A DNA stretch of 61,742 bases from an uncultured Chromatiaceae bacterium (GTDB taxonomy: Bacteria > Pseudomonadota > Gammaproteobacteria > Chromatiales > Chromatiaceae). The position numbers were made by a program, and so were the translations under genes. Of this stretch, positions 16,532 to 61,742 are shown in pieces. Location of the stretch: the NCBI GenBank assembly GCA_937923175.1, contig CALALB010000052.1, forward strand, positions 1-61,742, written 5' to 3'. The notes below the pieces were generated by a model. The model was not told the DNA's origin. It was given only the letters and a program-made list of their open reading frames with translations, and did not search any database. Every line of letters starts with the position of its first letter. The first letter of the stretch is position 1.

Positions 16532-16537
16532 ATGCGA

Positions 16538-16615
<78 letters not shown>

Positions 16616-16654
16616 ATTAAGGAGAAAAATGATATTTTATCTCTCGACTCAGCG

Positions 16655-41583: not shown

Positions 41584-42696
41584 TTAACCCTTGGCGGCAA
41601 ACTCCTCCATGAACTGAGCCAGCTGCTCGACAGCACCAGGCGTCATGGCGTTATAGAGCGAGGCCCGTATCCCGCCAAGGGCGCGGTGCCCGCGCAGCCC
41701 GCTGCAACCCGCTCGTTCAGCCTGACGCAAAAACTCAGCCTCCCGTTCTGGGCTCGGCAGGCGAAAGACGACATTCATCAATGAACGATCCTGAGGGGCT
41801 GCCCAACCCAGATAAAGCTCGGGATAGCGGTCGATCACCGAATACAGACGCTTGGCCTTGCCCCGATTGAGGCTGAGCATCCGCTCAAGCCCCCCGATCT
41901 CCTCGATCAGCCAGCGCAAAACCCGCGAGACCGCATAGATGGCAAAGACCGGCGGGGTGTTATAGAGCGAATGGGCCTTGAGATGGGCCCGATAATCGAG
42001 TATCTCCGGCAGACCGGCGGATGGATGTTCAAGCAACTCGCGCCGGAGGATGACCAAAGTCACACCTGCCGGCCCCAGATTCTTTTGGGCATGGGCATAG
42101 ATAAGAGCAAACCGGGTTGGATCGAAGGGGTATGAAAGAAAGTCGGACGACATATCGCAGACCCGGATGACATCGTCACGCCCAGGCACCCAATGGAACT
42201 GCAACCCCTCAACCGTTTCATTCGAGACATAATGAAGATAGGCGGCATCGGCAGAGGGTTCGAGTTCATCGGCACGAGGGAGGCGGCGAAATCCCTCATT
42301 CTCCCCGTCCCAGAGGATGCGCACCCGACCCTCTAGCCGGGCAGCTGGGATGGACTTGGCGCTCCAATAGCCGGTGCGCAGATATTCGGCAGCCTGAGCC
42401 CGCCCGCGTAACAGATGCATGGGGATCATCGTAAACTGCAGGCTGGCCCCCCCCTGAAGAAAAAGCACTGCATAGTCATCGGGCAGTCCCAGCAGCTGGC
42501 GCAGGTCCTGTTCAGTCTGCGCCAAAAGCTCAGCAAACCAGTCAGAACGGTGACTGATCCCAAGGATCGACAACCCTGCCCCAGGCGCTGACCGAATGGC
42601 CTCCCGAAGTTCATCCAAGACGCGCGCCGGCAAGACCCCAGGTCCACCCGAAAAATTGAGCGCATTGCGATCGAGTAAATAGGGATCCCTGACCAA
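41584..42696 (-). CDS. serC: Phosphoserine aminotransferase
   Basis: A PLP enzyme of class V that makes 3-phosphoserine from 3-phosphohydroxypyruvate in serine synthesis, and also acts in pyridoxine synthesis. LNFSGGPGVLPARVL is the family start, and FLQGGASLQFTMIPM binds the phosphate. The PLP lysine is in IYAHAQKNLGPAGVTLV. RRLPRADELE and LYNTPPVFAIYAVSRVL are also typical. It is 370 residues. It is the last gene of a cluster msrA, ATP-grasp, serC with only 1-8 bases between genes. Confidence 0.96.
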   Translation of the reverse strand: MVRDPYLLDRNALNFSGGPGVLPARVLDELREAIRSAPGAGLSILGISHRSDWFAELLAQTEQDLRQLLGLPDDYAVLFLQGGASLQFTMIPMHLLRGRAQAAEYLRTGYWSAKSIPAARLEGRVRILWDGENEGFRRLPRADELEPSADAAYLHYVSNETVEGLQFHWVPGRDDVIRVCDMSSDFLSYPFDPTRFALIYAHAQKNLGPAGVTLVILRRELLEHPSAGLPEILDYRAHLKAHSLYNTPPVFAIYAVSRVLRWLIEEIGGLERMLSLNRGKAKRLYSVIDRYPELYLGWAAPQDRSLMNVVFRLPSPEREAEFLRQAERAGCSGLRGHRALGGIRASLYNAMTPGAVEQLAQFMEEFAAKG

Positions 42697-42697
42697 C

Positions 42698-43930: not shown

Positions 43931-43938
43931 AAGAGGTC

Positions 43939-44505
43939 TCAGGTCAGGATCGATATCGGTTGCGCCTGATGCTGGTCAGTGACCAGGCGTTCGCAAAGGT
44001 GGTGGCGCAATTTGGCGAGCTTAGGTGCAATCACGGCCTGGCAATACCCCTGGAGCGGATAGCGGCGATAATAATTGCGATGATAGGACTCGGCCGGATA
44101 AAAGGTCGGCAGCGGCCCAACCTGGGTCAGGATCGGGCTCGACCAATGGTTCTGCAGCCGGGCGATCATGGCCTCGGCCTGAGCGCGCTGCTCCTCATCG
44201 TGATAAAAGATGACCGAGCGGTACTGGCTGCCCACATCGGCCCCTTGCCGGTTCAGGGTAGTGGGGTCATGGACGGTAAAAAAGATCTCAAGCAAGGCTG
44301 AATAATCGATCTCTTGATCGTCGAAGGTGATCTGGACGACCTCTGCATGGCCAGTCGTTCCAGTGCAGACCTGTTGATAGCTGGGGTTCGGGCAGGTGCC
44401 ACCGGCATAACCGGGTTCGACCGAGATCACCCCCTTGACGATTTGAAAGACAGCCTCCAGACACCAAAAACAGCCGCCGCCAAAGGTTGCACACCGATAT
44501 GCCAT
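43939..44505 (-). CDS. msrA: Peptide methionine sulfoxide reductase A
   Basis: A repair enzyme for methionine-S-sulfoxide, 188 residues. The catalytic cysteine is in FGGGCFWCLEAVF near residue 13, together with the usual GYAGG and VCTGTTGHAEVVQI. A C-terminal cysteine (GYCQAVIAPKLAKL) is the likely resolving partner. VHDPTTLNRQGADVGSQYRS is also a family signature. The start MAYRCATFGGG is shorter than in E. coli MsrA. It heads the cluster msrA, ATP-grasp, serC and is divergent from hypF. Confidence 0.95.
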   Translation of the reverse strand: MAYRCATFGGGCFWCLEAVFQIVKGVISVEPGYAGGTCPNPSYQQVCTGTTGHAEVVQITFDDQEIDYSALLEIFFTVHDPTTLNRQGADVGSQYRSVIFYHDEEQRAQAEAMIARLQNHWSSPILTQVGPLPTFYPAESYHRNYYRRYPLQGYCQAVIAPKLAKLRHHLCERLVTDQHQAQPISILT

Positions 44506-44777
44506 AGTTCATCTCCCCCATTGATCGATCGTTTTGGATCTTATGGCCTGGGCAAAGGCTCAAGAGTGAGTGACGGGGAACCAAACAACCAGCCCCTCCT
44601 CCTGGTAGTCAGATGGTCTTCTGGGCGCGAGAATCGCCCAAACCCATCTACCCCCGGATCTGCCGCGTCCCCGGTCAAGGCGGAACCATTACCGCGCGGT
44701 TCGGTAAAACGCGGCATATCCAAGATTAGGAATGCAGGCTCGATCATCAAGGATCAAGGACCAGGCAAATAGGGTCT

Positions 44778-47144: not shown

Positions 47145-47465
47145 TCGGCAAGTCGGAAGGGCCGAGATCTCGGTCCCGTCATTTTGGTGGATCATTCCAG
47201 CGCCTCATTCCTGCGTAGGCCGGAACCCAGAACCATGAAGGACACCAGGAGATTTTCTGGACCCCGACGGGTCCAATGGACAAGGCCTAGGCGGTCTGCC
47301 TAAACCCGGGCAGATTCACGAGGGCCCCGCACCTGGTCTGGATCCGCATCTCGCCGCTCGCCAGCACAGGGTAAGCTCGAGGGTCCATTTGGGGTATGAT
47401 CAGGGCAGATTTGACCGAGCGTCAGAGGCTGGCGTTCGATAGTGGCAATCAATCCAGGTGTGGTT
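47145..47465. other. Intergenic region with REP-like hairpin
   Basis: About 320 bases between hypF and the hemerythrin gene. TTCCTGCGTAGGCCGGAA at about 47,205-47,222 resembles the interspersed palindromes (CATTCCTGCG...GGCAGGAATCC type) common in proteobacterial genomes. No coding frame was supported. Confidence 0.45.
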
Positions 47466-47876
47466 ATGCTCAAAGAATGGTCCGAGGTCTATGCGATTGG
47501 CATCCCCGAGATCGATGAACAGCATCGAGGCTTTTTCGAGGTCGCTCATCGTTTGTATACCCAGATCCTCGATCGCGAGGGCCGGCAGGCCGTGGTCGAG
47601 GCCATCGCCTTTATGCGCAGCTATGCCAATCTGCATTTCCAGACCGAAGAGGCATTCATGCGCACCCATGCCTATCCCGGTCTTGCCGAGCATCAACGTC
47701 TCCATACCGCCTTTTTCCGCAGGCTTGATGAGCTTGAAAATGAGCTGATGATCTTCGGCCCCACCCAAGACCTCGCAGACCGCGCGCTCGACATCACCCA
47801 GGACTGGCTGATCGAGCATATCGCCGACGAGGACATGCTCTACGCCCTGCATGTCCGGGCTGAGGCCTCAGCCTAG
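47466..47876 (+). CDS. Bacteriohemerythrin
   Basis: A single-domain hemerythrin of 136 residues with a di-iron site that binds oxygen. The ligand pattern is complete: His and Glu in DEQHRGFFE, His and Glu in LHFQTEEAFM, HQRLH, and HIADEDMLY. Single-domain bacterial hemerythrins carry or sense oxygen; with an oxygen-sensitive hydrogenase nearby, oxygen protection is a reasonable guess but not shown. The ATG at 47466 is preceded by AGGTG at good spacing; an in-frame GTG at 47442 lacks one. Confidence 0.93.
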   Translation: MLKEWSEVYAIGIPEIDEQHRGFFEVAHRLYTQILDREGRQAVVEAIAFMRSYANLHFQTEEAFMRTHAYPGLAEHQRLHTAFFRRLDELENELMIFGPTQDLADRALDITQDWLIEHIADEDMLYALHVRAEASA

Positions 47877-48052
47877 GCAAGAATCCCAGCCCGATTGCAG
47901 GCTGCGCCTCAATTTGGGCGCAGGCGTGCCCACTAGAGCCTGCCAGGTCAGAATGCCGATCTCGCGCCGCAGGCATAAGCCCAGGGCCGCTGGCGACAAG
48001 CTTGGGACAGAGACGGCGGTAAGGCAATCTGCCGCAGCCCCCGCCCCAAGGA

Positions 48053-50095
48053 TCAGCCTATCCTCAACAGGGTTCGGCCAGCGCGCACGAGCGGTGAGGG
48101 CAGATGCCGTTTGAGCCATTGACGCCCACCATAGGGCAGGCTCAGCAAGAGTGCCTGCGGCCTAAGGGCGGCCAGGAGATGAAACGGCCATCTCAGGGGT
48201 GAGGCCAATAGGCGCTGCACATACCAGGGGCTGTTGGCGATGCTCCCCTCATACCAGCGGGTCAGGCGGGTGCGCGTTCTAGCCGGCCGCAACCGATAGG
48301 TCAGCGCCGCCCCCAGACTCAAAGGGGGGGCAAAGGGCAGCAGGCGTCCGGTCGGATCGGGCGAATAGGGAAAATCGCTGAGTGCCTGGGCTAAGAGAGG
48401 GGTGGGATGCGCGACCAGATATTCGAGCCGTTTGAATTGGCTCGGCATGAGTGTGATCTGCTCATCCGGCTTAAGCCAGCGCCCGAGCCGCTCGCTCATC
48501 CAGGCGATGCCCGCCCGAAACTCGGCAAGACCCCAGGCCCTGATCGCTCCACCCTCATCATTGAGGATCGGCTGAATCATCCCCCCCTGTTCCTGGTAGC
48601 CGAGGGTGCTGCCATGATCGGCGGCGGTGAAACATTCGAGGAGTTCACGCAGGGCGCTTGGGTCAGACCAGAAATGTCCCGGGCTAAAGGCGCAGGCCAG
48701 TTTGCGATTGCCTGAGTCATCGGCCTGGCCCCAATTCATCAGACCCCAATAAAGACCCAGGAACTCGACCGAGCCGGCAAAGAGGCTATGCAGGGTATCC
48801 TGGATGCTCCCGCTCCAGCCGATATCGACTAAACAGACCCGCTCGCCCGCCTGGATGCCTTCCTGGCGGAGATAGCCCAACAAATGGGCGCGCGCTTGGG
48901 CGCGTCTCTCAGCAAGCAGCGCCTGGAGTCTAGGATTGGTCATCAGAGAGGTGCGCAAACGGCGGCGGGCTGAGCGATCCAGCCGGGCATCGGGCGCCCT
49001 GGCAAGACCAGCAGCTGTGCCCAGCAATTCAAACGACTCCTCGGCGCTCAGGTTTAGCCGATAAGCCAGGTCACTCAAGGTCAGTTCGCCATGGGCGAGG
49101 AACAGCCAGTCTAGCCATGCCTGCTCATCCCGCTCGAGACAGCGCTGGCAGCTTAAGCGCGAGACATAGAGATAACGCGGCTTAGGTTCTTTGAGCCCAA
49201 GCTGGCGGGCGATCTCGAGCAGGACCTGACCATCGCGGGCCAGAAAATAGATCCGCTGGTATCCTCGAGCGCGTGCCTGCTCGAAGGCCCATTGCACGAA
49301 TGGGACCAAGACCGGCGCGGCATAGATGGCGCCAAGCCGAGCGCGCTCCGCGGCCAGGGTCAGACGGGCCTCGCGCATCAGCCCTGTCGCTAGCTGCCAG
49401 CCCAGGTCGTCCTCATTGGCACCGATGCGTTCATCGGCGGTGAGATGACAGTCATGAAACAGGCTCACCTGACAGCCGCGCGCCTGTGGGCTTTTGTAAT
49501 CGCTGAGCGGATTATCGCCGATGTGGACCATCTCTGGCGGCCTGACCCCCTCGACCTGCGCGACCTGGTCGAACAGCCGGCCCGAGGCCTTGTTAAGCTT
49601 GATCTCAGAAGAAAGATAAAGACTTGCCCGCGCGATGATCCCGGGGTCGATCCCAGCAAGCAGGCGCCTAAGGTCCTGGGGCCGCAGATACATATCCGAG
49701 ATCAGGGCGAGGCGTTTGCCCTCAGCTGCCAACTCATGAAAACGGGCGAGCGTCTCAGGAACCCCATACAAGACCTCAGACTCGATCTCCAGCTCAAGCT
49801 CGATCAAACGCTCGAGCTGGTCAGCATCCAGGCCATGCTGCTTCCCAAGCCAGGCATAGATTGCGGTCAGATCGATCTCCTCGATCTGCAGCTCGGCATC
49901 TGGGTCGGCGGCGCGCGCCGACTCCCGCGCTGACCATTCCGCTGCCACCCGCTCGCGGGCAAAGCGCTCGCAGAGGGTCGCGGGTAGCCCCTGAGGGGCT
50001 TGGCTTAGCCGCTGCTGCATGAGCACAAAGACGCCGCGCGGCGTGGCTACCCGGCGGCTTACCAGGGTATCGAAGACATCAAAGGTATGGATCAT
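48053..50095 (-). CDS. Large HAD-family hydrolase-like protein of the glycan locus
   Basis: A 680-residue protein. The N-terminal third is a HAD hydrolase: nucleophile Asp6 in FDVFDTL, motif II in LALISDMYL, motif III lysine in EIKLNKASG, and motif IV in HIGDNPLSDY. The rest (from about residue 260) is a second conserved domain with IYFLARDGQVLLEIARQL and LYVSRLSCQR. Such proteins are found in surface-polysaccharide loci and are usually annotated only as HAD hydrolases. A paralogue with a dead active site lies at 54,370-56,433 on the other side of the sugar genes. It is downstream of galE. Confidence 0.8.
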   Translation of the reverse strand: MIHTFDVFDTLVSRRVATPRGVFVLMQQRLSQAPQGLPATLCERFARERVAAEWSARESARAADPDAELQIEEIDLTAIYAWLGKQHGLDADQLERLIELELEIESEVLYGVPETLARFHELAAEGKRLALISDMYLRPQDLRRLLAGIDPGIIARASLYLSSEIKLNKASGRLFDQVAQVEGVRPPEMVHIGDNPLSDYKSPQARGCQVSLFHDCHLTADERIGANEDDLGWQLATGLMREARLTLAAERARLGAIYAAPVLVPFVQWAFEQARARGYQRIYFLARDGQVLLEIARQLGLKEPKPRYLYVSRLSCQRCLERDEQAWLDWLFLAHGELTLSDLAYRLNLSAEESFELLGTAAGLARAPDARLDRSARRRLRTSLMTNPRLQALLAERRAQARAHLLGYLRQEGIQAGERVCLVDIGWSGSIQDTLHSLFAGSVEFLGLYWGLMNWGQADDSGNRKLACAFSPGHFWSDPSALRELLECFTAADHGSTLGYQEQGGMIQPILNDEGGAIRAWGLAEFRAGIAWMSERLGRWLKPDEQITLMPSQFKRLEYLVAHPTPLLAQALSDFPYSPDPTGRLLPFAPPLSLGAALTYRLRPARTRTRLTRWYEGSIANSPWYVQRLLASPLRWPFHLLAALRPQALLLSLPYGGRQWLKRHLPSPLVRAGRTLLRIG

Positions 50096-50184
50096 CCGGG
50101 TTTACCGTTCGACTGTATCCTTGAAAGGGGTGAGACCCATGCTGTTCGCCCCGACCCTAAGGACTGCCTAGGATGCGGTTCGGA

Positions 50185-51168
50185 CTAAGCCGGGACCCTG
50201 GCTTGCTGATGCCAGCGCCAGGCATGGTCGATGATGGTCTCGAGCTCAGGGTAGCGGGGCCTCCAGCCGAGCTGATCCCGCGCCCTGCTCGCATCGGCAT
50301 AGAGCACCGGTGGATCCCCAGGTCGGCGCGGCCCGATTGACCGCGGGACGGCGCACCCCGCAAGACGCTCAACCGCAGCGATGACCTCGAAGACCGAATG
50401 CCCCCGGCCGGTGCCGAGATTCAAGGTGCCGCTTTCCCCACCAGCGCGCAGATAGGCCAAGGCCAGGACATGCGCCTCGGCAAGATCCGCCACATGGATA
50501 TAGTCGCGGATACAGCTGCCATCCGGGGTCGGATAATCATCGCCGAAGACCTGAAGCTCAGGTCCCTGGCCCAAGGCCGCCCGGATCGCGAGCGGGATCA
50601 GATGGGTCTCGGGGTGATGATCCTCGCCCAGCTCGCCCTCGGGATCGGCCCCAGCCGCATTGAAATAGCGCAGCGCAACCCAGTTCAAACCGTGCGCCTG
50701 CGCGAAATCGCCCAGCATGCGCTCGACCATCAGCTTGGATGCACCATAGGGATTGATCGGGCACTGGGGATGATCCTCGGTAATGGGCAGCTGGTCGGGG
50801 ATACCATAGATGGCACAGGTGCTGGAAAAGATCAGATGATGGATCCCATGATCGCGTAGCGCCTCGAGCAGGCTCAGGGTCCCAGCCACATTGTTGCGAT
50901 AATAGCGGCCGGGATCGCGCACTGACTCGCCGACATAGGCAAAGGCGGCAAAATGGATCACCGCCTGCGGCCGATAACGGGCGATGACCGCATCCAGACA
51001 GGCGCGATCGCCGATGTCCCCCACCGCAAGCGGCCCCCAGCGCACTGCCCACTCATGACCATAGACGAGATTATCGAGCACGATCGGCTGATAACCCGCC
51101 CGGCTTAAGGCCTTGCAGGTCTGGCTGCCGATATAACCGGCCCCGCCGGTGACCAGGACAGGGATCAT
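50185..51168 (-). CDS. galE: UDP-glucose 4-epimerase
   Basis: An extended short-chain dehydrogenase that converts UDP-glucose and UDP-galactose. The NAD-binding motif [16 protein letters not shown] is at the N-terminus, the catalytic SSTCAIYG serine is followed by the YGASK tyrosine-lysine pair, and [10 protein letters not shown] is a GalE signature. It has 327 residues. It overlaps the upstream UDP-glucuronate decarboxylase by 4 bases, so both provide nucleotide sugars for the same glycan. Confidence 0.94.
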
Positions 51169-52124
51169 GCCAACCTCCGGCGGATCAGATCCTCGAAATA
51201 GGCGATGGTCTGTTTAAGCCCCTCGACGAGCGGCACGCGTGGCTCCCAGCCGAGCAGCTCCCGGGCGCGGCTGATGTCCGGCTGACGCTGCACCGGATCA
51301 TCCGCCGGCAATGGGCGATGGACTAGGGGTGAGCCTGAGCCAGTGAGCTCGCGGATCAGCTCAGCCAGGGCGCGCACGCTGATCTCGGTTGGATTGCCCA
51401 GATTGATCGGCCCAGTGATCTCTGGGGGGCTGGCCATCAGGCGCAAAAAGCCCTCGATCATGTCATCGACATAGCAGAACGAACGGGTCTGGCTGCCATC
51501 GCCATAAAGGGTGATCGGCTCGTTCTTGAGGGCCTGGATGATAAAGTTCGACACCACTCGCCCGTCGTTGGGGTGCATCCCTGGGCCATAGGTATTAAAG
51601 ATACGCGCGACCTTGATCTCCAGACGATGCTGGCGGTGATAGTCGAAAAATAGGGTCTCGGCGCAGCGTTTGCCCTCGTCATAACAGGCGCGCGGCCCGA
51701 TCGGATTGACCCGGCCCCAATAATCCTCGGATTGGGGGTGACACTCGGGGTCGCCATAAACCTCGCTGGTCGAGGCCTGAAAGATCCGCGCCTTGGTGCG
51801 CTTGGCCAGACCTAGCATATTGATGGCCCCATGCACACTGGTCTTGGTCGTCTGAACCGGATCGAGCTGATAATGGATCGGCGAGGCCGGACAGGCGAGG
51901 TTATAGATCTCATCGACCTCCACATAGAGTGGAAAGGTGATGTCATGGCGCATGAGTTCGAAATGGGGATGGCCGAGCAGATGGCTGATGTTGTCCTTGG
52001 TAGCTGTGTAAAAGTTATCGACACACAGCACCTCGCAATCCTCAGCGATCAACCGCGCACATAATCGACTGCCGAGAAAACCGGCCCCACCGGTGACCAA
52101 GACGCGTTTATGGAGTGTTTTCAT
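51165..52124 (-). CDS. uxs: UDP-glucuronic acid decarboxylase (UDP-xylose synthase)
   Basis: An extended SDR enzyme that turns UDP-glucuronate into UDP-xylose. The NAD motif [13 protein letters not shown] is followed by [14 protein letters not shown] and the UXS hallmark [12 protein letters not shown]. The catalytic region has [15 protein letters not shown] and [14 protein letters not shown], and [20 protein letters not shown] is typical. It is 319 residues. Xylose in a surface glycan is the likely outcome. It precedes galE in the same transcript. Confidence 0.95.
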
Positions 52125-52174
52125 AGGTCCCTGCCCTAAGACTTACCGAGCGAGCTGATCAAGGGGCGCCAACC

Positions 52175-54286
52175 TTAGCCGCCACCCAACTCAGCCAGCC
52201 TTGGATAGCAAAGCAACACCAGGTCAGAAACCGGCGATTGGAGGTCCAGGCGCCTGAACGCAAAGTAATAGCCGAGATCCAGCGACCCGATCCAGGGCTT
52301 GATCTCGAAAAAGTCCTTGGGATGGTGATAGACGCTGACGATAAGCGCTGGGCGATAGCGTCTGAGCGTCCTGACTGCGCCGCGCAGGGCCTCAAACTCC
52401 AAGCCCTCGATATCGAGCTTGATCAGGATGGGATGCAGACCATGACGCTCGACCAAGGCATCGAGGGTCTCGAATCGCCCTCTGAGCCGATGCTCGCCGC
52501 CATGCGCGATGGTATCGCGAAAATCGGCCAGCAAACTGGTGCCCTGATCAGGGAAGTCGGCGGCGCCATGATGGCAGAGGGTGAATTCGCCCGGCTGCTC
52601 ATGCAAACCCAAGTCCTCAGCGAGGATCCGATCTGCCAATCCAAAGCGCTCGATATTGGCCTGCAGACGGCTGAAATTCGTTGGATCGGGTTCGAGCGCC
52701 AATACCCTCGCCCTAGGACAGGCATCGGCCAGCTGGATCGCTGAGTCACCGATGAAGGCACCGCCATCGATGATATCGCCCCCCCGCTGGATACGCGCCC
52801 GAATATCGCGCGGCAGGGCATTCAGTCCATACAGCGTGGCGAATACATCGGCCGACAACCAGGGGTATTGCTCGAGAAAGACCTGATAGCGCTGCGCCAC
52901 CAAGGGACGCGCCTGGGATTGGCGGAAGCGCTCGCGCGGGCGCCACAGCAGATCCTTATGCAAAAGAAAACGGCTGTAATCCCGGCAGGCAGGCAAATGA
53001 TCCAGATAGATACCGACAAAGGTCTCGACCAGGGCGCGATCGTCCTCAGACAGCCCCTGCTTGAGCCTGGCCAGGCGCTCTGGGAGCTGGGCGCGCTGGG
53101 CATCGAGATAGGCGCGCCAGAACTGCACCCAATAGGTGACCACATGTTGATAATTGTGCAATAGATCCCAGCAGCGCGGATCCATCAGCTGAGCGCCCAG
53201 GAAACGCCGTTTGAGCGCCTGGAAACGTGGGTGCTGGGTCAGCCGTCGGCGGGTGGTCTGGAGCATCTGGCGCAGGCGCGCCCGCCCGCCGCTCAGATAA
53301 CGCCTTGCCGTCAATTGCGCGGCCAACAGGCGATGGGCGCCGCGCCGATAAAGCGGCGAGGCAAAGAGGCGCTCATAAAAGCGCCGTGCCTCTGGATCGA
53401 GCAGCTCCGGATACTCGCGCACAAAGCGTTCTTCATCCGCAGACAGGCCCTCCAGGATCCCCAGATAGGCCAGATAGCGGAAGCGCGGTTCGATGTCGCG
53501 GGTCCAGAAATATTGCAGGCCCATCTTGTATTGCATGAAATCCCGAAAGACCGCCTCATAGACCCCTTGTTCGCGAAAATGCGCGATTCCCTCCTTGAAG
53601 ATCCGAAAGATATCCAGATGATGGCGCCCGCGATGCCACATGATCGAGCCCGGACGCATCCGATAGCGATAGAGCTTTTCCGGTAGGACGACGACCCGAT
53701 TGGCCGCTAGCAGCACCTTCCAGTGATAGACGTTGTCATCGAACTGCAGGCCGTCTGGAAAGCGAAAATCGTATCGATTGAGAAAATCAACCCGGAAAAA
53801 CTTAGACCAGGTGTAATGATAATGGAGGATATCGAGCTTCTGCTCGAGGGTGGTCTTGGGCTCGAGGTTCCAGGAGTCGAAGTCGTAATACCAGTTATCG
53901 AACTCCTGGGTCTCATCGAACATGATGTGCTGGAAGACGATGAAATCGGCGCCCGTGCGCTCGATCTCTTCCACGAGGCGGCGGATCGCGCCGGGACGCA
54001 GCATGTCGTCCGAATCGACATGCATGAGATATTGGCCGCGGACCTGACCCAAGGCGGTATTGCGGGTCGAGGCGAGTCCCCGGTTGGTCTGATGGACAAT
54101 CCGGATACGCGGGTCTTGGCGGGCATATTCCTCGAGGATCGCTGGCGACTCGTCGGTCGAGCCGTCATTGACACAGATGATCTCGAGATCCTGAAAGTCC
54201 TGCTCGATGATCGAGTCCAGACAGTCCCTCAGATAGGGCGCGACATTATAAACAGGCAAGGCGACGCTAACGGTAGGAGACGCCAT
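52175..54286 (-). CDS. Glycosyltransferase family 2 - FkbM methyltransferase fusion
   Basis: A 703-residue two-enzyme protein. Residues 1-230 are a GT2 (GT-A fold) glycosyltransferase: VSVALPVYNVAPYLRDCLDS, IICVNDGSTDES and the metal-binding DSDD in LMHVDSDDML. The middle (240-490) is helical and of unknown function. The C-terminal part (about 490-703) is an FkbM-type SAM methyltransferase: GGDIIDGGAFIGDSAIQLA, VLALEPDPTNFSRLQANI and LIKLDIEGLEFEALRGA. It may add a sugar and methylate the product. It is the first of the sugar genes in the minus-strand transcript, 50 bases before uxs. Confidence 0.88.
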   Translation of the reverse strand: MASPTVSVALPVYNVAPYLRDCLDSIIEQDFQDLEIICVNDGSTDESPAILEEYARQDPRIRIVHQTNRGLASTRNTALGQVRGQYLMHVDSDDMLRPGAIRRLVEEIERTGADFIVFQHIMFDETQEFDNWYYDFDSWNLEPKTTLEQKLDILHYHYTWSKFFRVDFLNRYDFRFPDGLQFDDNVYHWKVLLAANRVVVLPEKLYRYRMRPGSIMWHRGRHHLDIFRIFKEGIAHFREQGVYEAVFRDFMQYKMGLQYFWTRDIEPRFRYLAYLGILEGLSADEERFVREYPELLDPEARRFYERLFASPLYRRGAHRLLAAQLTARRYLSGGRARLRQMLQTTRRRLTQHPRFQALKRRFLGAQLMDPRCWDLLHNYQHVVTYWVQFWRAYLDAQRAQLPERLARLKQGLSEDDRALVETFVGIYLDHLPACRDYSRFLLHKDLLWRPRERFRQSQARPLVAQRYQVFLEQYPWLSADVFATLYGLNALPRDIRARIQRGGDIIDGGAFIGDSAIQLADACPRARVLALEPDPTNFSRLQANIERFGLADRILAEDLGLHEQPGEFTLCHHGAADFPDQGTSLLADFRDTIAHGGEHRLRGRFETLDALVERHGLHPILIKLDIEGLEFEALRGAVRTLRRYRPALIVSVYHHPKDFFEIKPWIGSLDLGYYFAFRRLDLQSPVSDLVLLCYPRLAELGGG

Positions 54287-54369
54287 GAGGATCGCTGCTC
54301 CAATTGAAAACTGCCTTATACCCCAGAGGCGCAGTCCATGGTAAACCGTTTAAGCCAATTTGGCCGACC

Positions 54370-56433
54370 CTAGGCCTTGCCCTGACGCAATCGCCACAGC
54401 GCCCTCCATTCATTCAGCCGCCGGCTCAAACCGGCTTTCAACAAAAGCAGACTATGGAATAGGTTAAGCGGGGTATGTTTAATGAATGACTTAAGCGCCT
54501 GGATCCTGGGCTGAAGTCTGAGGACCAGGCGCGCCAGCCCTTGGCTGCGCACCAGGGTTGCTTCATACCACTCGGTCATCAGCCGGCGCTCTTCATAACG
54601 CCGGCCAAAGGTATAGGCCAGGGCCTGGCGCCAATCGAAGGCAGGGGCTGCCTCGCGCAGGGCCAAATCGCAATGATCGCCCGAATAGGGGATGCGGCCC
54701 AGGGTCTCGGCAAGCAGGGACGAGGGGCGACGCATCAGTACCAATAAACGCGGCACAATGGCATCGAAATGCTCGGCCAGCAGAGGAAAACGCCCTGCCA
54801 GCTGGGCATATTCGGCAGCAAACCAGCCAGCGGCATTCAGAAACTCATCGATCCCCCAAGCGCGCAGATGATCGCCGGCATCGCGCAGCTGCGCCCGAAT
54901 GCGCCCATCAGCGCCCCGCGCATAGCCAGTGGTCTGACCATGATCGGCCTGGGCTAGCAGTTCGGCATGCAGGGCCACGAGATTGTCTTCTGCCTGATTG
55001 GGTCGGATGGCATAGGCGCTCTTGCGATTGCGACGGCTGGTATAGGGGGAGTAATGAAAGAGCCCGAAATAAAAGCCATGGATCTCGATCGCTGGCTGAT
55101 GGGCGGCGGCAATCTTATAGAGCGCATCCTGACTGCCGCCCATCCAGCCGATATCCACGATGCCGATTGGACCCTCAGCGAAAAAACCCTCCTGTTCAAG
55201 ATATTCGAGCAATAGAGCGCGCGCCTGGGCGGCCTTGGCGAGGATGGTAGCGCGCACTGCCGGCAGATGATCCAGCCGCTCGACCAATTCGGCAGCCAAG
55301 GCCACAGACAAGGGTGCATCCTCAGCGGGCAGACGCGCCCGCAGTTCAGGATCAATCTGGTTCAAGAGCTCGGCGGCGGTCATATCCAGACGCTCGGCGA
55401 GCATCGCAAGCGACAGGGTGGGGATGCGTTCGGTCAGCCAAGCATGCTCGCGCGGTCCGAGTTCGAAAACCGAGGGCAGACGAAAGGCGCGCCTTGAGCC
55501 ATAGAGATAACGCAGCTCGAGGGTCAAGCCGCGCGCCTGGGCGATCGCCTGGGCCAGGCGCAAAAAGATCATGCCATCGCGGGCGATGAAATAGAGACGG
55601 CGGATACCCCGTCGCTCTGCCTCCTCGAGGAGCCATTGGATAAAGCCATAGAACAGCGGGCCTGCCAATCCCGCCCCCAGGCGCGCCGGCCCGGCGGCAT
55701 GGGGATGCACCAGACGATAGGCCCTCGCCGTCCCTGCTACGAGCTGGGAAAACAGGCTATAGAGCTCGAGATAGGACCATTCGAGCTCAGAAAGCGCAGC
55801 GCCGGCATAGTGCTCAGCGGTACATCCCAATGCCCGCGGGACCCTGACATCCGACCAGGGATCATCGCCCAGATGGACAAGCTGGGCCGCACTAATCCCT
55901 TCAGCCTTAAAGACCGCGCGAAACAGCGCCCCGCTGGCCTTGGTCAATCCCAGATCGACTGCCGTATAGCAGGGACAGTCCGCAAGTCGCGTATCGATTT
56001 CCGAGAGCAGTTGCCTAAGCTCGGTGTTGCCCAACCAGCCATCCGAGATCAATATCACCCGCTCGCCGGCATCGAGCAGTCGATGGACGCGATCGAGGTT
56101 TTCAGGGATACCGAGCGAGAGGCTCTGAGTCGTCGCAAGCTCAAGCGCCTTGAGTGCAGCGGTCTGCTCTGGGGAGAGCCCATACTGCTCGGCGATACCC
56201 GCATAGATGGCATCCAGACCCATCGGCCTCAGACTCCCCTGGGGGTAACGAACCGCTCGTTCGACTCCCATCCGGATTGCGGGAAACTCCTCGATCAATT
56301 GGATCGGCAGGCCAGGGATCGACCCGAGATGGAGGGTCTGGCGCATCGCGCAAAACACCCCCGCAACAGTCGCCGTGCGTTGGGTCAGCAGGGTCTCGAG
56401 GATGGCGAATGAAAAAACCCGCTCGCGAGCCAT
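54370..56433 (-). CDS. HAD-family paralogue lacking the catalytic aspartate
   Basis: A 687-residue paralogue of the 48,053-50,095 protein. The N-terminal motif reads FSFAILETLL where the sister has TFDVFDTLVS: the nucleophile Asp is Ala10. The other motifs persist (VILISDGWLG, GLTKASGALF, LVHLGDDPWSD), and the second domain is alike (LYFIARDGMIFLRLAQAI, LYGSRRAFRLP). It is therefore probably a pseudoenzyme or a scaffold. The ATG at 56433 (MARERVFSF) is preferred over one at 56469. It ends 84 bases before the glycosyltransferase start and may lead its transcript. Confidence 0.78.
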   Translation of the reverse strand: MARERVFSFAILETLLTQRTATVAGVFCAMRQTLHLGSIPGLPIQLIEEFPAIRMGVERAVRYPQGSLRPMGLDAIYAGIAEQYGLSPEQTAALKALELATTQSLSLGIPENLDRVHRLLDAGERVILISDGWLGNTELRQLLSEIDTRLADCPCYTAVDLGLTKASGALFRAVFKAEGISAAQLVHLGDDPWSDVRVPRALGCTAEHYAGAALSELEWSYLELYSLFSQLVAGTARAYRLVHPHAAGPARLGAGLAGPLFYGFIQWLLEEAERRGIRRLYFIARDGMIFLRLAQAIAQARGLTLELRYLYGSRRAFRLPSVFELGPREHAWLTERIPTLSLAMLAERLDMTAAELLNQIDPELRARLPAEDAPLSVALAAELVERLDHLPAVRATILAKAAQARALLLEYLEQEGFFAEGPIGIVDIGWMGGSQDALYKIAAAHQPAIEIHGFYFGLFHYSPYTSRRNRKSAYAIRPNQAEDNLVALHAELLAQADHGQTTGYARGADGRIRAQLRDAGDHLRAWGIDEFLNAAGWFAAEYAQLAGRFPLLAEHFDAIVPRLLVLMRRPSSLLAETLGRIPYSGDHCDLALREAAPAFDWRQALAYTFGRRYEERRLMTEWYEATLVRSQGLARLVLRLQPRIQALKSFIKHTPLNLFHSLLLLKAGLSRRLNEWRALWRLRQGKA

Positions 56434-56512
56434 GGCCTCTGTGTCTTCAGAGCCGTCAAATCTTCTCACTCTGCAAGGAGTGTTGGGCTATTCTTCTTGC
56501 AGCTTCAGGCAT

Positions 56513-56541
56513 AAAAAAGGCCAATCGCTTGGATTGGCCTT
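56513..56541 (-). terminator. Rho-independent terminator of the tRNA operon
   Basis: On the minus strand AAGGCCAATC and GATTGGCCTT form a 10-bp stem with a 5-base loop, followed by TTTT. It lies 7 bases beyond the CCA end of tRNA-Lys. Confidence 0.9.
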
Positions 56542-56547
56542 GCGGTT

Positions 56548-56623
56548 TGGTGGGCCGTCAGGGATTCGAACCCCGGACCGATGGATTAAGAGTCCACTGC
56601 TCTACCAGCTGAGCTAACGGCCC
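56548..56623 (-). tRNA. tRNA-Lys(CTT)
   Basis: Acceptor GGGCCGT pairs with ACGGCCC; discriminator A and encoded CCA. The anticodon stem is GTGGA/TCCAT with loop CTCTTAA, giving anticodon CTT. It is the last gene of the Pro-Arg-His-Lys operon. Confidence 0.96.
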
Positions 56624-56636
56624 TTCAAACTCGACA

Positions 56637-56713
56637 TGGGGTGGACGATGGGGCTCGAACCCACGACCACAGGAGCCACAATCCTGTGCTCTACCAACTG
56701 AGCTACGTCCACC
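56637..56713 (-). tRNA. tRNA-His(GTG), copy 1
   Basis: Acceptor GTGGACG pairs with CGTCCAC, with the extra G at position -1 (56713) facing C73, the histidine identity pair. Anticodon loop TTGTGGC gives GTG. Encoded CCA. Confidence 0.96.
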
Positions 56714-56738
56714 ATGGTCGATCATCCTGGGTTGCGAG

Positions 56739-56815
<77 letters not shown>

Positions 56816-56861
56816 TCGATGGGCTGATGGTCGCATGTTCAGCGCACGTCACGAGCAACTT

Positions 56862-56938
56862 TGGTCGGGGTAGAGGGATTTGAACCCCCGACATCCTGCT
56901 CCCAAAGCAGGCGCGCTACCAGGCTGCGCTACACTCCG
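56862..56938 (-). tRNA. tRNA-Pro(TGG), copy 1
   Basis: Acceptor CGGAGTG faces TACCCCG, leaving an A-C mismatch at the fourth pair. All other arms are regular; loop TTTGGGA gives anticodon TGG. Encoded CCA. The 5' acceptor sequence equals that of copy 2 (57,670), whose acceptor is perfectly paired, so the mismatch may mark a join. Confidence 0.93.
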
Positions 56939-56962
56939 ACACTCGTCTCAGCGAGGCTGCGA

Positions 56963-56991
56963 ATGATACCGATGCTTAAAATATTCGTCAA
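56963..56991 (-). promoter_or_regulatory. Promoter of the tRNA-Pro-Arg-His-Lys operon
   Basis: On the minus strand TTGACG (56991-56986) and TATCAT (56968-56963) are 17 bases apart, an almost ideal sigma-70 promoter. The -10 ends about 25 bases before the tRNA-Pro 5' end. Confidence 0.75.
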
Positions 56992-57072
56992 CGCAAAAGT
57001 GAATCTATCGTCAAGAAGTTGAATAAATTGTTTCTAAAGGCCTAGCTGTGTGAAAATAGGGCAACTGAAAAA

Positions 57073-57393
57073 ATGACTATCTTGGGAGACCACCTGTTGT
57101 CCAATACATTAATCTTAGATGGTAAAGCCGTCGCAAAACGCACAGAGATTGAACTGAGCGATCGCGTCGAAAAAATTAAGGCCTCTACCGGTATAACACC
57201 TATTTTAGCCACAATTTTAGTCGGTGATGACCCCGCATCAGCGACCTATGTCAAAATGAAGAGTCAGAAAGGCGGCATTGTAGCAAAGATTAGCAATAAT
57301 CCAGAAGCAGGTAGACAAAACGTGTGCAAGATTAACGAATTAATACGAGTTTTTTATGAAAAGATTTTTGAAACAGAAGTAAAGAAATACTAA
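57073..57393 (+). pseudogene. folD: Truncated folD fragment
   Basis: Codons 11-65 correspond to the N-terminus of FolD ([35 protein letters not shown]) and are similar but clearly not identical to the intact copy at 58,143. After VKMK the sequence leaves the family and ends in an unrelated lysine-rich tail of about 45 residues. The catalytic lysine region is incomplete and the NADP domain is absent, so it cannot be a functional enzyme. The DNA is AT-rich like the rest of this end of the window. Confidence 0.8.
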
Positions 57394-57411
57394 GAGAGGT
57401 GTTTAAAAAAT

Positions 57412-57488
57412 TGGGGTGACTGACGGGGTTCGAACCCGCGACCACCGGAATCACAATCCAGGGCTCTACCAACTGAGCTACAGTCACC
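57412..57488 (-). tRNA. tRNA-His(GTG), copy 2
   Basis: Acceptor GTGACTG pairs with CAGTCAC, with G-1 facing C73; the loop gives anticodon GTG; encoded CCA. It differs from copy 1 at many stem positions. Confidence 0.96.
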
Positions 57489-57526
57489 ATCACTCTGCGA
57501 GAAGCGGCACATTATTATAAGAAGAA

Positions 57527-57603
<77 letters not shown>

Positions 57604-57669
57604 TTATGACACCAATGCTAGCTAAAGCTTAACTAAACATTGTGAATTGACACAATCGCAGGCAAAAAA

Positions 57670-57746
57670 TGGTCGGAGTGGAGGGATTCGAACCCCCGAC
57701 ATTCTGCTCCCAAAGCAGACGCGCTACCAGGCTGCGCTACACTCCG
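57670..57746 (-). tRNA. tRNA-Pro(TGG), copy 2
   Basis: Acceptor CGGAGTG pairs perfectly with CACTCCG; loop TTTGGGA gives TGG; encoded CCA. It shares a 28-base exact stretch with the 5' part of copy 1. Confidence 0.96.
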
Positions 57747-58142
57747 ATTTCGAAATTCTAACTTGATCATCACAATGTATCTATAGTTAAGTATAGATAT
57801 TGCAACTCTTCTTAAGCCAGTGCTCTCAAAAGAGGTGCGCATCATACTCATGCCTTTTTTGGCCGTCAATGTTAATTTTCATTTTTTTCGAAGTTACGTA
57901 ACATAATCAGGCCTAGAGGAGATTGGCTGATGTGAATGACTGTGTGACAATATCACTAAGCGGCCATAAAATAGCCTCAAAGGTCATTCCTTACGTAAGA
58001 ATCTTACGCTGACCTCAAGCCAGAATAAACCTTATACAAAATACTATAAAACACGATGCAGACCTGACAAAGCCGATACTTTAGGGGTTATCACCCCTAG
58101 TATGTATCCCTTTGCAAATCTCAATAATACTGGACATTATCT
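57747..58142. other. Divergent promoter region between tRNA-Pro copy 2 and folD
   Basis: About 400 bases, AT-rich, with no coding frame. It must carry the promoters of the tRNA set (minus) and folD (plus). TAGGGGT-TATC-ACCCCTA at 58082-58099 is a 7-bp hairpin upstream of folD. CTTACGTAAG (57988-57997) is a short palindrome. No clear -35/-10 pair was identified. Confidence 0.45.
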
Positions 58143-58988
58143 ATGACAGCCTTGATTTTGGACGGCAAAGCCCTCGCAAAAAAAACTGAAGAAGAGCTTA
58201 GCCTGCGTGTAAAAGCGTTAAAAGAAAAGGGAGGCAGCACTCCCATACTGGCCACCATACTCGTAGGCGATGATCCAGCATCAGCAACCTATGTCAAAAT
58301 GAAAGGCAATGCGTGCGAGCGCATTGGCATGGGCTCGATTCGTGTTGAAATGCCAACCGAAACCACCACTCAAGAGCTGCTCAAGAAAATTGAAGAACTC
58401 AACCAAAACCCTGACGTGCACGGCATTCTGTTACAGCACCCTGTACCCGCCCAAATTGACGAGCGCGCCTGCTTTGATGCAATTGCACTTAAAAAAGATG
58501 TTGATGGCGTGACCTGCTTAGGGTTTGGCAGAATGAGTATGGGCGAACCTGCTTATGGCTCTGCAACACCCAAAGGCATTATGCGCTTACTAGAAGGCTT
58601 TAATATGCCGCTAGCGGGCAAACATGCTGTTGTTGTAGGCCGTAGCCCCATCCTTGGCAAGCCAATGGCCATGATGCTACTCAATGCTAACGCAACCGTA
58701 ACTATTTGCCACTCACGCACTCAAAACCTTGCAGACCACATCAAACAAGCCGATATCATTGTGGGTGCAGTCGGCAAACCCGAATTTATCAAAGCCGAAT
58801 GGATTAAAGACGGCGCCATTGTAGTGGATGCAGGCTATCATCCCGGTGGTGTTGGTGATATTGAATTAGCACCGCTTGCGAGCCGCGCTGCGGCTTATAC
58901 ACCCGTTCCCGGTGGTGTTGGGCCCATGACGATCAATACTTTGATTTATCAAACCGTTGAGGCGGGCGAGAAGAGCCTGGGAGCTTAA
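58143..58988 (+). CDS. folD: Methylene-THF dehydrogenase/cyclohydrolase
   Basis: A bifunctional folate enzyme, 281 residues. It interconverts 5,10-methylene-THF, methenyl-THF and 10-formyl-THF. The catalytic lysine is in [31 protein letters not shown] and the NADP site [13 protein letters not shown] follow, and the end reads [14 protein letters not shown]. The gene is intact and AT-rich. It lies divergent from tRNA-Pro copy 2, an order (folD next to Arg/His/Pro tRNAs) found in several gammaproteobacteria. Confidence 0.97.
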
Positions 58989-59014
58989 GCCAGCCCCCTA
59001 TAACGAACAAGCCA

Positions 59015-59719
59015 ATGAGACTCGACCGATTTATCGCCAATAATACAGGCTTACCGCGCAAAGAGGCCTGCTTGCTCATTAAGCAGGGGCGCATCAGTTG
59101 TAATAACGCCGTTATTCAACAAACGGCTTTTAAGGTGGGCGCAGATGATTTGGTCGAGCTTGATGGCGATACTATTAAAGATCCCACTCATCTGTATTGG
59201 ATGATGAATAAAGCGCAAGGAATTGTTTGCGCCAATCACGACAGTGAACATCCGACGGTTTTTGACAGCATCGATAAAACCGCTATTCACCCTGCTTTAC
59301 GCCAAAACCTTCAAGTTGCTGGCAGGCTAGACAAAGATACAACTGGGCTCGTACTGATAACAACTGATGGTCAATGGAACCACACTGTAACCAGTCCACA
59401 CAAAACCATAGGGAAGCGTTATCGCGTAGAGCTAGCCGAATCAATAACAGAAGAGGCAATTCTACAAATCGAGGCTGGCATTGCATTACGCAATGAACCA
59501 CAAGCCTGCAAACCCGCTCAAATAAGCCTGTTCTCACCAAATAGCTGTTTACTCACGATTCACGAAGGCAAATATCATCAAGTCAAACGCATGTTCGCCG
59601 CGACAAACAATCGCGTCGTAAAATTACATCGCGAAGCCATTGCGAATATAAAGCTCGATACCGGCCTCAAACCCAATGCCTACCGTGCATTAACACAAGA
59701 CGAAATTCACTGCCTATGA
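59015..59719 (+). CDS. rsuA: 16S rRNA pseudouridine synthase (RsuA-type)
   Basis: A 234-residue RNA modification enzyme. An S4 RNA-binding domain (MRLDRFIANNTGLPRKEA, IKQGRISCN) precedes the catalytic domain with the active-site aspartate in VAGRLDKDTTGLVL. HEGKYHQVKRMFA is the RsuA/RluB/E/F signature. The length and the acidic HLYWMMNKAQGIVC segment fit RsuA, which modifies U516. It starts 26 bases after folD and overlaps rsmC by 4 bases. Confidence 0.88.
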   Translation: MRLDRFIANNTGLPRKEACLLIKQGRISCNNAVIQQTAFKVGADDLVELDGDTIKDPTHLYWMMNKAQGIVCANHDSEHPTVFDSIDKTAIHPALRQNLQVAGRLDKDTTGLVLITTDGQWNHTVTSPHKTIGKRYRVELAESITEEAILQIEAGIALRNEPQACKPAQISLFSPNSCLLTIHEGKYHQVKRMFAATNNRVVKLHREAIANIKLDTGLKPNAYRALTQDEIHCL

Positions 59720-60777
59720 GCACATCAGACCATGCAATTGACACACTACTTGAACAGCTACGCAAGCATCAGCTCGACACAACGCAAAAGAGCAATCAAA
59801 AAAGCCTGTGGTTTGCCGATGAAAATTCGCATTTAGTGATGCACTCGCTAGGCCAGCACAAGGATAACGTTGATGTACTTACCAACCGCTTTGACATCCA
59901 TCAAAGTGCTTTACATTTAGGATTAACGAGTATTTTTAATGATGTTGATTTCTCAGAAACAGATGCTCCCTTTGATCATATTTATCTTAGAGTCAGTAAA
60001 GAAAAGGCTGTAATGCACCATGCCATCAATCAGGCGTGCGCTCATTTAAAACCTTCCGGGCAACTACATATTGCAGGCAATAAAAATGAAGGTGCAAAGA
60101 CCTACATAAAAAAGGCTTCGATACTTTTCACTGAAAAGTCCGCCATTACAAAAGATAAAGACACCTACAGCATCACACTGAGTCAACCTAATCATGAAGC
60201 CGAAAGCCTTGATACAAATAACTACACCGCGCTGAGAGAAATCGGGCAGTACAACGCTATGCCACTATTCAGTAAGCCTGGTGTATTTGGTTTTGATAAA
60301 TTAGATGAAGGCAGCCTACTGTTACTTGAAACACTGAAAAAAGAACAAATAGAGACGGGCAAAGATATTCTAGACTTAGGCTGTGGTTATGGGCTGCTCA
60401 CATTAGGCGCTTTTGCATTGAAAGCAAAAAGCTACACCGCAACCGATAATAACGCTGCGGCTTTGATTGCAATACAACACAATGCACAAGAGTGGAGAGA
60501 GAAAATAGATATAATACCTGCAGATGCAGGGAAAGAAATCGAAAAAAAGTTCGATCTTATTCTCTGCAACCCACCTTTTCACCAAGGATTTAGTGTCAGT
60601 GGAGAATTGACTGATAAGTTTTTAGCGAATACAAAAAAATTGCTAGCAAAGGAAGGTGTAGCATATTTTGTGGTGAATAGCTTTGTTGGTATTGAAAGTC
60701 GTTCCGACAAAAAACAATTACATATCAAAACGATTCTCAATAATAAAAAATTCAAAGTATTAAAATTTTCACAGTAG
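59716..60777 (+). CDS. rsmC: 16S rRNA guanine-N2 methyltransferase (RsmC-like)
   Basis: A 353-residue duplicated-domain methyltransferase like RsmC, which methylates G1207 of 16S rRNA. The SAM motif ILDLGCGYGLLTLGAFA lies near residue 220. LILCNPPFHQGF is the catalytic NPPF signature, and GVFGFDKLDEGSLLLLE is the RsmC-family motif. The N-terminal half is the degenerate substrate-recognition domain. It is coupled to rsuA by an ATGA overlap; both modify small-subunit rRNA. Confidence 0.9.
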   Translation: MSTSDHAIDTLLEQLRKHQLDTTQKSNQKSLWFADENSHLVMHSLGQHKDNVDVLTNRFDIHQSALHLGLTSIFNDVDFSETDAPFDHIYLRVSKEKAVMHHAINQACAHLKPSGQLHIAGNKNEGAKTYIKKASILFTEKSAITKDKDTYSITLSQPNHEAESLDTNNYTALREIGQYNAMPLFSKPGVFGFDKLDEGSLLLLETLKKEQIETGKDILDLGCGYGLLTLGAFALKAKSYTATDNNAAALIAIQHNAQEWREKIDIIPADAGKEIEKKFDLILCNPPFHQGFSVSGELTDKFLANTKKLLAKEGVAYFVVNSFVGIESRSDKKQLHIKTILNNKKFKVLKFSQ

Positions 60778-60784
60778 CCGCGAA

Positions 60785-61742
60785 CTAGCTTGCAATCAAT
60801 ACATCAGCAAAAAAATGCACTAGCGCTTGTTTCACATTTGTTTCATTAGGGAGGTTAGGCTCCAAAATAGCAACAATATCATTAATACAGCGTACACCAT
60901 CAACAAGGTCTAGCGTTGCCTTTGCTACGGGGTCATCAACACTACTAACACACTCATTCTTAACTATTGGTAGATAATGTAGTACGAGCCAATCAGGAAG
61001 GCTTCTATCATCGGCATTAGAACGTTCATCTGGCCGATATTGTGCACAAAAGACCCATAGCTCATCTATCCTTTTACTTACATTCAATGGTGATGGTAAG
61101 TGTACGTAGGGGCTAGCTGATTCACTAAGCAGCTTAAATCTACCAAGAGATATCAGCTCTCTAAGTTCTTTATGATTATATTTAATCTCTGCAGGCAACG
61201 ATGTCGAATATAACAACGGCCCCGTGTTAATCCAGTAGCCTCCTGGCTTTAGCCACTTCGATATTTTTTCAAGGAGAGCTCGATTATCACCCTCATGAAT
61301 ATCCAAAAACCATGACGTAACAATGCAATCGAAAGTTTGAGGCGCAAAATCAAACTGCCAGATATCACCAACCAACTGACGAAAAGAGTCTTTCAATTTT
61401 TGATCTGCATCCGTAATTGCGTGCAGATCCCAACTCATATAGTTATCTGAAATACCCATCTGAGGAGAAGAAGATGCTTCAGGAAAAGGAGGTAATGATT
61501 TGCCCGAGATGAGCTCACTTGGTATAAGCTGCAGAGCCGGATTAAGGTCAAGTGTTGTTGTAAAGGCATTGTCCAGACTCGCATGGAGTTCCCAAGCCAC
61601 TCGACCCGCTCCAGACCCCAAAACAAGCACATTATTACCACAATCTTGCGGCCATATATTTTGAAGAGTCCTGAGTTGCTCATAGTGAGAGCCTGGGACA
61701 TCAACCTCCCATGCCCAATCACGCAATATGTGCGAAAAATAA
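60785..61742 (-). CDS. N2227/carnosine-N-methyltransferase-like protein (5' end outside)
   Basis: The frame is open to the right edge; no start inside the window is convincing (a TTG at 61726 only). HILRDWAWE near the edge and VLVLGSGAGRVAWELH are the N2227 family signatures. CIVTSWFLDIHE and WLKPGGYWINTGPL complete the SAM methyltransferase core. In eukaryotes this family includes carnosine N-methyltransferase; bacterial members have no settled substrate. It is convergent with rsmC, 7 bases apart. Confidence 0.78.
   Translation of the reverse strand, partial: YFSHILRDWAWEVDVPGSHYEQLRTLQNIWPQDCGNNVLVLGSGAGRVAWELHASLDNAFTTTLDLNPALQLIPSELISGKSLPPFPEASSSPQMGISDNYMSWDLHAITDADQKLKDSFRQLVGDIWQFDFAPQTFDCIVTSWFLDIHEGDNRALLEKISKWLKPGGYWINTGPLLYSTSLPAEIKYNHKELRELISLGRFKLLSESASPYVHLPSPLNVSKRIDELWVFCAQYRPDERSNADDRSLPDWLVLHYLPIVKNECVSSVDDPVAKATLDLVDGVRCINDIVAILEPNLPNETNVKQALVHFFADVLIAS

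What the first reader, a model, noticed from the sequence alone, without database searches (positions are those of the whole stretch)
56862..61742. Abrupt change in base composition and gene identity at a tRNA cluster
Everything left of tRNA-Pro copy 1 is GC-rich; everything right of about 57,000 is AT-rich with different codon use. The right side repeats the order tRNA-Pro-Arg-His and carries folD, rsuA and rsmC, ordinary chromosomal genes with no integrase in view. tRNA-Pro copy 1 has an A-C mismatch in its acceptor, and its 5' arm equals that of the AT-rich copy 2, with a shared exact stretch of 28 bases. This pattern fits either a recombination or integration inside the tRNA, or an assembly chimera joining two organisms. 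Against a join inside the tRNA, a good promoter lies intact at 56,963-56,991, so the join may instead be at about 56,992-57,072.
Basis: partly seen in the sequence, partly recalled or inferred. Interest (0 to 1): 0.75.

Follow-up and report, generated by a model that had tools for sequence, protein, structure and literature searches.

The report
Contig misjoin inside a tRNA gene
The end of this contig comes from a different bacterium, most likely glued on by the assembler inside a tRNA gene that the two organisms nearly share, so the odd junction is very probably an assembly artefact rather than biology.

Summary
The window is all of contig C52 of a 96-contig, 91%-complete draft. Its last 15 kb before tRNA-Pro copy 1 are largely collinear (71-88% identity) with a complete same-genus genome, G004; the genus is Chromatiaceae, Allochromatium group (with PMC3368242). 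From 57412 to 60777 it is Cellvibrionaceae-like chromosome: tRNA-His-Arg-Pro, then divergent folD, rsuA-like and rsmC-like genes, as in relatives of 43-47% GC. tRNA-Pro copy 1 is a hybrid: left 61 nt equal G004's gene, right 57 nt equal a Cellvibrionaceae gene, overlapping in 41 shared nt (56882-56922). Two covarying acceptor pairs are broken and the predicted fold loses the acceptor stem. The "intact promoter" lies right of the join, so it is no argument against a join inside the tRNA. Transfer is not excluded: no reads were available, and the draft holds no native folD and no native 5' half of this tRNA. A folD remnant (57073-57262) hints at a second source or an old duplication, and the last gene (60785-61726) was not traced.

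The parts
41585..56938 (.). Native left flank: largely collinear with same-genus complete genome G004, ending with tRNA-Lys-His-Arg and the 3' part of tRNA-Pro
   Evidence: blastn against G004 1955000-1992000, 71-88% identity in pieces, last piece ending at the 5' end of tRNA-Pro; 88% over 56495-56938. Window 1-41584 was not compared with G004
56862..56938 (-). tRNA-Pro(UGG) copy 1, hybrid gene
   Evidence: left 61 nt equal L092 (G004), right 57 nt equal L023 and L048; acceptor pair 4 is A-C and pair 7 is G-U; predicted fold lacks the acceptor stem
56882..56922 (.). Interval that must hold the join: 41 nt exactly shared by the two parent tRNA-Pro types (to 56931, 50 nt, if the native gene is of the L103/L107 type)
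56963..56991 (-). sigma-70-type promoter upstream of the tRNA-Pro 5' half (TTGACG-17-TATCAT), right of the join
   Evidence: consensus scan, 10 of 12 matches; similar elements by eye upstream of tRNA-Pro in L023, L010, L165, L009, but also in some family members of the left organism such as L099 and L100, so the element alone is not diagnostic
57073..57262 (+). N-terminal folD remnant (folD'), Cellvibrionaceae-like; the open frame runs on to 57393 without further similarity
   Evidence: Pfam PF00763; 74% aa identity over 54 residues to the folD at 58143; best relatives in Cellvibrionaceae
57263..57411 (.). 149 bp of 32% GC without significant match in the loci held
57412..57746 (-). Second tRNA-His, tRNA-Arg, tRNA-Pro set, Cellvibrionaceae type
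   Evidence: 83% identity as a block to G114 and G111; tRNA-Pro identical to that of 10 of 72 in the folD loci, L011 among them
58143..58988 (+). folD, Cellvibrionaceae type
   Evidence: 91-92% aa identity to G114, G111, G112; 43-46% to the folD beside the tRNA cluster in 10 loci of the left organism's family; 39% and 70% in two loci outside that family, L105 and L109
59015..59719 (+). RsuA-like pseudouridine synthase
   Evidence: Pfam PF00849 and S4; same place in 4 of 4 Cellvibrionaceae loci, 46-54% identity
59716..60777 (+). RsmC-like methyltransferase
   Evidence: Pfam MTS and MTS_N; same place in 4 of 4 Cellvibrionaceae loci, 38-53% identity
60785..61726 (-). Carnosine N-methyltransferase-like protein near the contig end; lineage not traced
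   Evidence: Pfam CARME; no match at E <= 1e-3 in the 80 folD loci nor at E <= 1e-4 in the four loci

Best explanation
The contig is an assembly chimera. Up to somewhere in 56882-56922 it is chromosome of a Chromatiaceae bacterium (Allochromatium group). From there on it is chromosomal DNA of one or two Cellvibrionaceae bacteria. Shown here: tRNA-Pro copy 1 is a hybrid of two parental gene types that are identical over 41 (or 50) nt, and the two sides have different relatives. Inferred: the assembler walked through this shared stretch from one genome into the other, and binning kept the contig because about 92% of it is Chromatiaceae.
For: Collinearity with G004 up to the tRNA and no match beyond it except to the second tRNA set. 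Right side with Cellvibrionaceae gene order, composition and sequence, folD 91-92%. Hybrid tRNA with two broken acceptor covariations, while 93 of 95 full-length tRNA-Pro(UGG) from 104 loci have seven Watson-Crick pairs and none has a mismatch at pair 4. Predicted fold without the acceptor stem that copy 2 and G004's gene form. Parents sharing 41-50 nt exactly. Foreign piece of only 4.8 kb that reaches the contig end. A second His-Arg-Pro set after a complete Lys-His-Arg set. Of nine draft contigs inspected because they end near this locus, four end at or inside these tRNAs: L009 and L066 at tRNA-Pro, L021 and L076 in tRNA-Arg.
Against: No reads or coverage were available. Estimated contamination of the draft is only 0.47%. 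The draft's only folD is the foreign one, as a genuine replacement would also show. No contig with the native 5' half of this tRNA was found. The closest relatives of the right side (G114, G111, G112) carry a tRNA-Pro sharing only 15-20 nt with the Chromatiaceae genes; the 41-50 nt overlap needs a source with an L023-type gene, and that source genome was not found. The folD remnant and 57263-57411 are not explained by one join. The last gene, 60785-61726, has no match in the Cellvibrionaceae loci read.
Confidence: 0.92

Rival explanations
1. Recent horizontal transfer: a Cellvibrionaceae fragment entered a Chromatiaceae cell and recombined homologously within tRNA-Pro, bringing its own tRNA set and folD and displacing the native folD.
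For: The only folD in the 91%-complete draft is the foreign one. In four of the seven same-genus genomes folD lies beside this tRNA cluster: next to tRNA-Pro in G001, G002 and G003, on the tRNA-Lys side in G006. A swap there is conceivable.
Against: No return to native DNA is seen before the contig ends. Composition is that of the presumed donor. The break lies in a stretch that both lineages share. The native folD may be among the missing 9%: in G004 it lies elsewhere, and most of that stretch has no good match in the draft.
Confidence: 0.05
2. Integration of a genomic island into the tRNA-Pro gene by a site-specific recombinase.
For: tRNA genes are common integration sites (recalled); there is a composition break at a tRNA.
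Against: No integrase among the five main right-hand ORFs, no convincing repeat besides tRNAs and folD. The right side has conserved chromosomal gene order in 4 of 4 Cellvibrionaceae loci read. No plasmid or phage record covers 80% of the segment. The acceptor stem of the target tRNA is damaged rather than restored.
Confidence: 0.01
3. A three-source chimera: Chromatiaceae, then a first Cellvibrionaceae (tRNA-Pro 5' half, promoter, folD' remnant), then a second Cellvibrionaceae from about 57263-57411 on. This is a version of the best explanation, not an alternative to it.
For: folD' is only 74% identical to the folD 0.9 kb away. The right part of tRNA-Pro copy 1 fits the L023 type over 57 nt and the copy-2 type over 27 nt. 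In 0 of 144 Cellvibrionaceae genomes does a second match to the folD fragment lie near the first (4 of the 144 had more than one match, 4 had none).
Against: No shared stretch that would explain a second join was found at 57262-57411. Tandem tRNA duplication does occur in a BD1-7 clade genome (L053), so an old duplication with a decayed folD' in one organism is possible.
Confidence: 0.45

Closest known systems
Inter-genome chimeric contigs of metagenome assemblies
   Same: Two organisms joined in one contig, with the foreign piece at the contig end. [quoted passage not shown]
   Different: There the two genomes were closely related (Salmonella enterica and Escherichia coli); here they belong to different families and the join is inside a tRNA gene.
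Cellvibrionaceae tRNA-His-Arg-Pro / folD-rsuA-rsmC locus
   Same: Gene order, orientation, composition and sequence similarity of 57412-60777.
   Different: A folD' remnant next to folD was seen in none of the 144 family genomes searched; the gene at 60785-61726 was not found beside it in the loci read.
tRNA-associated genomic islands
   Same: Composition break at a tRNA gene.
   Different: No integrase, no convincing attachment repeat, no restored tRNA end in view; mainly conserved chromosomal genes.

Membership tests
Assembly chimera (two genomes in one contig) | The two sides have different closest relatives and are each collinear with them | tested here: met
   Left (41585-56938) with G004; right (57412-60777) with G114, G111, G112, G178
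Assembly chimera (two genomes in one contig) | The join lies in a stretch identical in both parents | tested here: met
   41 nt (L092 with L023) or 50 nt (L107 with L023); these are stand-ins, the actual right-hand parent genome was not found
Assembly chimera (two genomes in one contig) | Coverage or read-pair break at the join | not testable with these tools
   No reads are available
Genomic island integrated at a tRNA gene | Integrase or recombinase gene in the element | tested here: not met
   Pfam scan of the five main ORFs between 57073 and 61726 shows none; DNA beyond the contig end is unseen
Genomic island integrated at a tRNA gene | tRNA end restored by the element, with direct repeats at both ends | tested here: inconclusive
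   Only the second tRNA set and folD repeat convincingly in 56400-61742; the far end is off the contig
Cellvibrionaceae chromosome | Gene order tRNA-His-Arg-Pro and divergent folD-rsuA-rsmC | tested here: met
   folD, rsuA-like, rsmC-like in order in 4 of 4 loci read; the tRNA trio in 3 of 4, with tRNA-His not called in L167

The most novel reading that the evidence does not exclude
A real, very recent interfamily transfer in which a purple sulfur bacterium exchanged its folD and part of a tRNA operon for a Cellvibrionaceae block by homologous recombination inside tRNA-Pro, leaving a broken hybrid tRNA backed up by the imported copy.
Probability: 0.04. Interest if true: 0.4.

Novelty: not a real feature. 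Interest (0 to 1): 0.07.

Why it matters
It matters mainly for data hygiene. The right-hand 4.8 kb should be set aside before anyone reads folD, rsuA, rsmC or the extra tRNAs as belonging to this genome or as transferred into it. It also shows a simple diagnostic: a tRNA whose acceptor pairs fit neither parent places a join to within about 40 bases without any reads.

Tried and rejected
Join at 56992-57072: rejected, because the right part of the tRNA already follows the right-hand source and the promoter lies beyond it. Native continuation beyond tRNA-Pro: contig C37 of the draft carries the sequence that follows the tRNA in G004 (a photolyase-like gene, named by eye) from 4348 on, but C37:1810-4244 maps elsewhere in G004 (1448612-1451047) and the first 1.8 kb matches only repeats, so C37 does not supply the missing flank. 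Native folD: absent from the draft. Of the G004 stretch that holds it (19 kb, L122), the part from about 8950 to 18210, folD included, has only weak matches in the draft; beside it lie the 6-kb contig C6 and a short tRNA-Ala match in C46. Plasmid and phage sources: no record covers 80% of the segment; the rows listed (20 of 493 plasmid and 20 of 2004 phage records) match at the folD or the tRNA positions. Duplicated folD next to folD in Cellvibrionaceae: 0 of 144 genomes. Native rsuA: two matches of 29% and 37% identity elsewhere in the draft, not assigned. Papers: two searches on chimeric contigs, of whose listings only PMC8172020 was opened, in passages; no claim is made that tRNA joins are not in print. 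One search for the Allochromatium genome, PMC3368242 opened in passages. In one search one tRNA-Pro (L078, not 77 nt) was dropped before the count.

Full report
What the window is. It is the whole of contig C52 of a 96-contig, 2.53-Mb draft genome, 91.1% complete with 0.47% estimated contamination. The finding lies at the contig's right end.

GC falls from 60.7% (1-56861) to 44.0% (58143-61742), and GC3 from 0.67-0.73 in five left genes to 0.34-0.47 in the four complete right genes. The tetranucleotide profile of the right 4.8 kb lies 0.653 from the left mean, while 11 left blocks of equal size lie 0.123-0.172 from it.

The left side. Between 41585 and 56938 the window is largely collinear with the complete same-genus genome G004 (from 1955000 to 1974641), in pieces of 71-88% identity, the last ending at the 5' end of tRNA-Pro. 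Beyond that G004 matches the window only at the second tRNA set. The window left of 41585 was not compared with G004; pieces around 32-38 kb match two other same-genus genomes in another order. One of these, G001, has a 3,526,903-bp contig, which equals the chromosome size printed for Allochromatium vinosum DSM 180 (PMC3368242, passages read). From this I take the left organism to be a Chromatiaceae of the Allochromatium group.

The right side. folD at 58143 is most like Cellvibrionaceae: 87% to an uncultured Cellvibrionales draft and 91-92% to G114, G111 and G112. Of 144 genomes of that family, 140 match the right side at E <= 1e-30. That the family is Cellvibrionaceae is inferred from the named loci in it, such as Saccharophagus, Gilvimarinus and Marinagarivorans. 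In the four loci read in detail, at 43-47% GC, folD, an rsuA-like (46-54%) and an rsmC-like gene (38-53%) follow in order, divergent from the tRNAs; the trio His-Arg-Pro is called in three, and tRNA-His is missing in one. Of the 80 folD loci, 40 have His-Arg-Pro on the minus strand before folD, as here, 15 have the trio inverted, and 25 have other or incomplete sets. In ten family members of the left organism a folD lies beside the tRNA cluster and is 43-46% identical to the right-hand one. The last gene, 60785-61726, was not found in the Cellvibrionaceae loci read; its composition fits the right side, but its lineage is not established. No sequenced genome close to the right-hand source was found.

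The join. tRNA-Pro copy 1 matches G004's gene exactly over its left 61 nt, and that of two Cellvibrionaceae (L023, L048) exactly over its right 57 nt. These two types share 41 identical nt, 56882-56922 (50 nt, to 56931, if the native gene is of the L103/L107 type). In the acceptor stem the parents differ by covarying pairs: G-C against A-U at pair 4, A-U against G-C at pair 7. Copy 1 has A-C and G-U there. Of 95 full-length tRNA-Pro(UGG) in 104 loci, 93 have seven Watson-Crick pairs and the other two differ only at pair 6 (one gene of other length was left out). RNA folding gives the acceptor stem for copy 2 and for G004's gene but not for copy 1, although ARAGORN still calls copy 1. So the two halves of copy 1 come from two different genes. 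The promoter at 56963-56991 lies right of the join. Similar elements stand upstream of tRNA-Pro in the Cellvibrionaceae loci inspected and also in some relatives of the left organism, so it is not diagnostic by itself; but it is no argument against a join inside the tRNA.

Artefact or transfer. The foreign piece is short, terminal, compositionally distinct, redundant in tRNAs, and joined through a stretch that both lineages share. That is what an assembler chimera predicts. Of nine relatives' contigs inspected because they end near this locus, four end at or inside these tRNAs, as expected if assemblers stall or misjoin there. PMC8172020 (passages) describes chimeric sequences at contig ends in a mock community. 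Against this, the draft has no other folD and no other 5' half of this tRNA, and reads could not be examined. In G004 folD lies elsewhere, beside tRNA-Ala, and that part of the stretch has no good match in the draft, so its absence is compatible with missing sequence. I put the chimera at 0.92.

What one join does not explain. At 57073-57262 there is an N-terminal folD remnant, 74% identical in protein to the complete folD 0.9 kb further on, followed by 149 bp of 32% GC with no match in the loci held. In none of the 144 family genomes does a second match to this fragment lie near the first. The closest relatives of the right side have a tRNA-Pro that shares only 15-20 nt with the Chromatiaceae genes, whereas the L023 type shares 41-50. 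This hints at a second Cellvibrionaceae source and a second join. An old tandem duplication, as seen for tRNAs without a folD remnant in L053, is the alternative. I leave this open at about even odds.

Noticed in passing
57073-57411: N-terminal folD remnant whose frame runs on about 43 codons past the similarity, then a 32% GC stretch of unknown origin before tRNA-His.
   Followed up: partly
60785-61726: Carnosine N-methyltransferase-like gene at the contig end with no match in the Cellvibrionaceae loci read.
   Followed up: partly
L053:4748-5641: A BD1-7 clade genome has a tandem repeat His-Pro-His-Arg-Pro before folD, with no folD remnant found between the sets.
   Followed up: partly
L078:1-130: The contig begins with a tRNA-Pro whose 3' end looks abnormal; possibly another misjoin at the same tRNA.
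   Followed up: no
G000:C37:1-4348: Sequence that follows the tRNA cluster in G004 is preceded in this draft by sequence mapping elsewhere in G004: a rearrangement between the species or a further assembly fault.
   Followed up: partly
48053-50095 and 54370-56469: Two large proteins that look related to each other by eye, in a glycan-type gene cluster; the second has no Pfam match, the first was not scanned.
   Followed up: no
G001-G007: folD lies beside the tRNA cluster in some members of the genus (G001, G002, G003 at tRNA-Pro; G006 at tRNA-Lys) and elsewhere in others (G004, G005, G007).
   Followed up: partly
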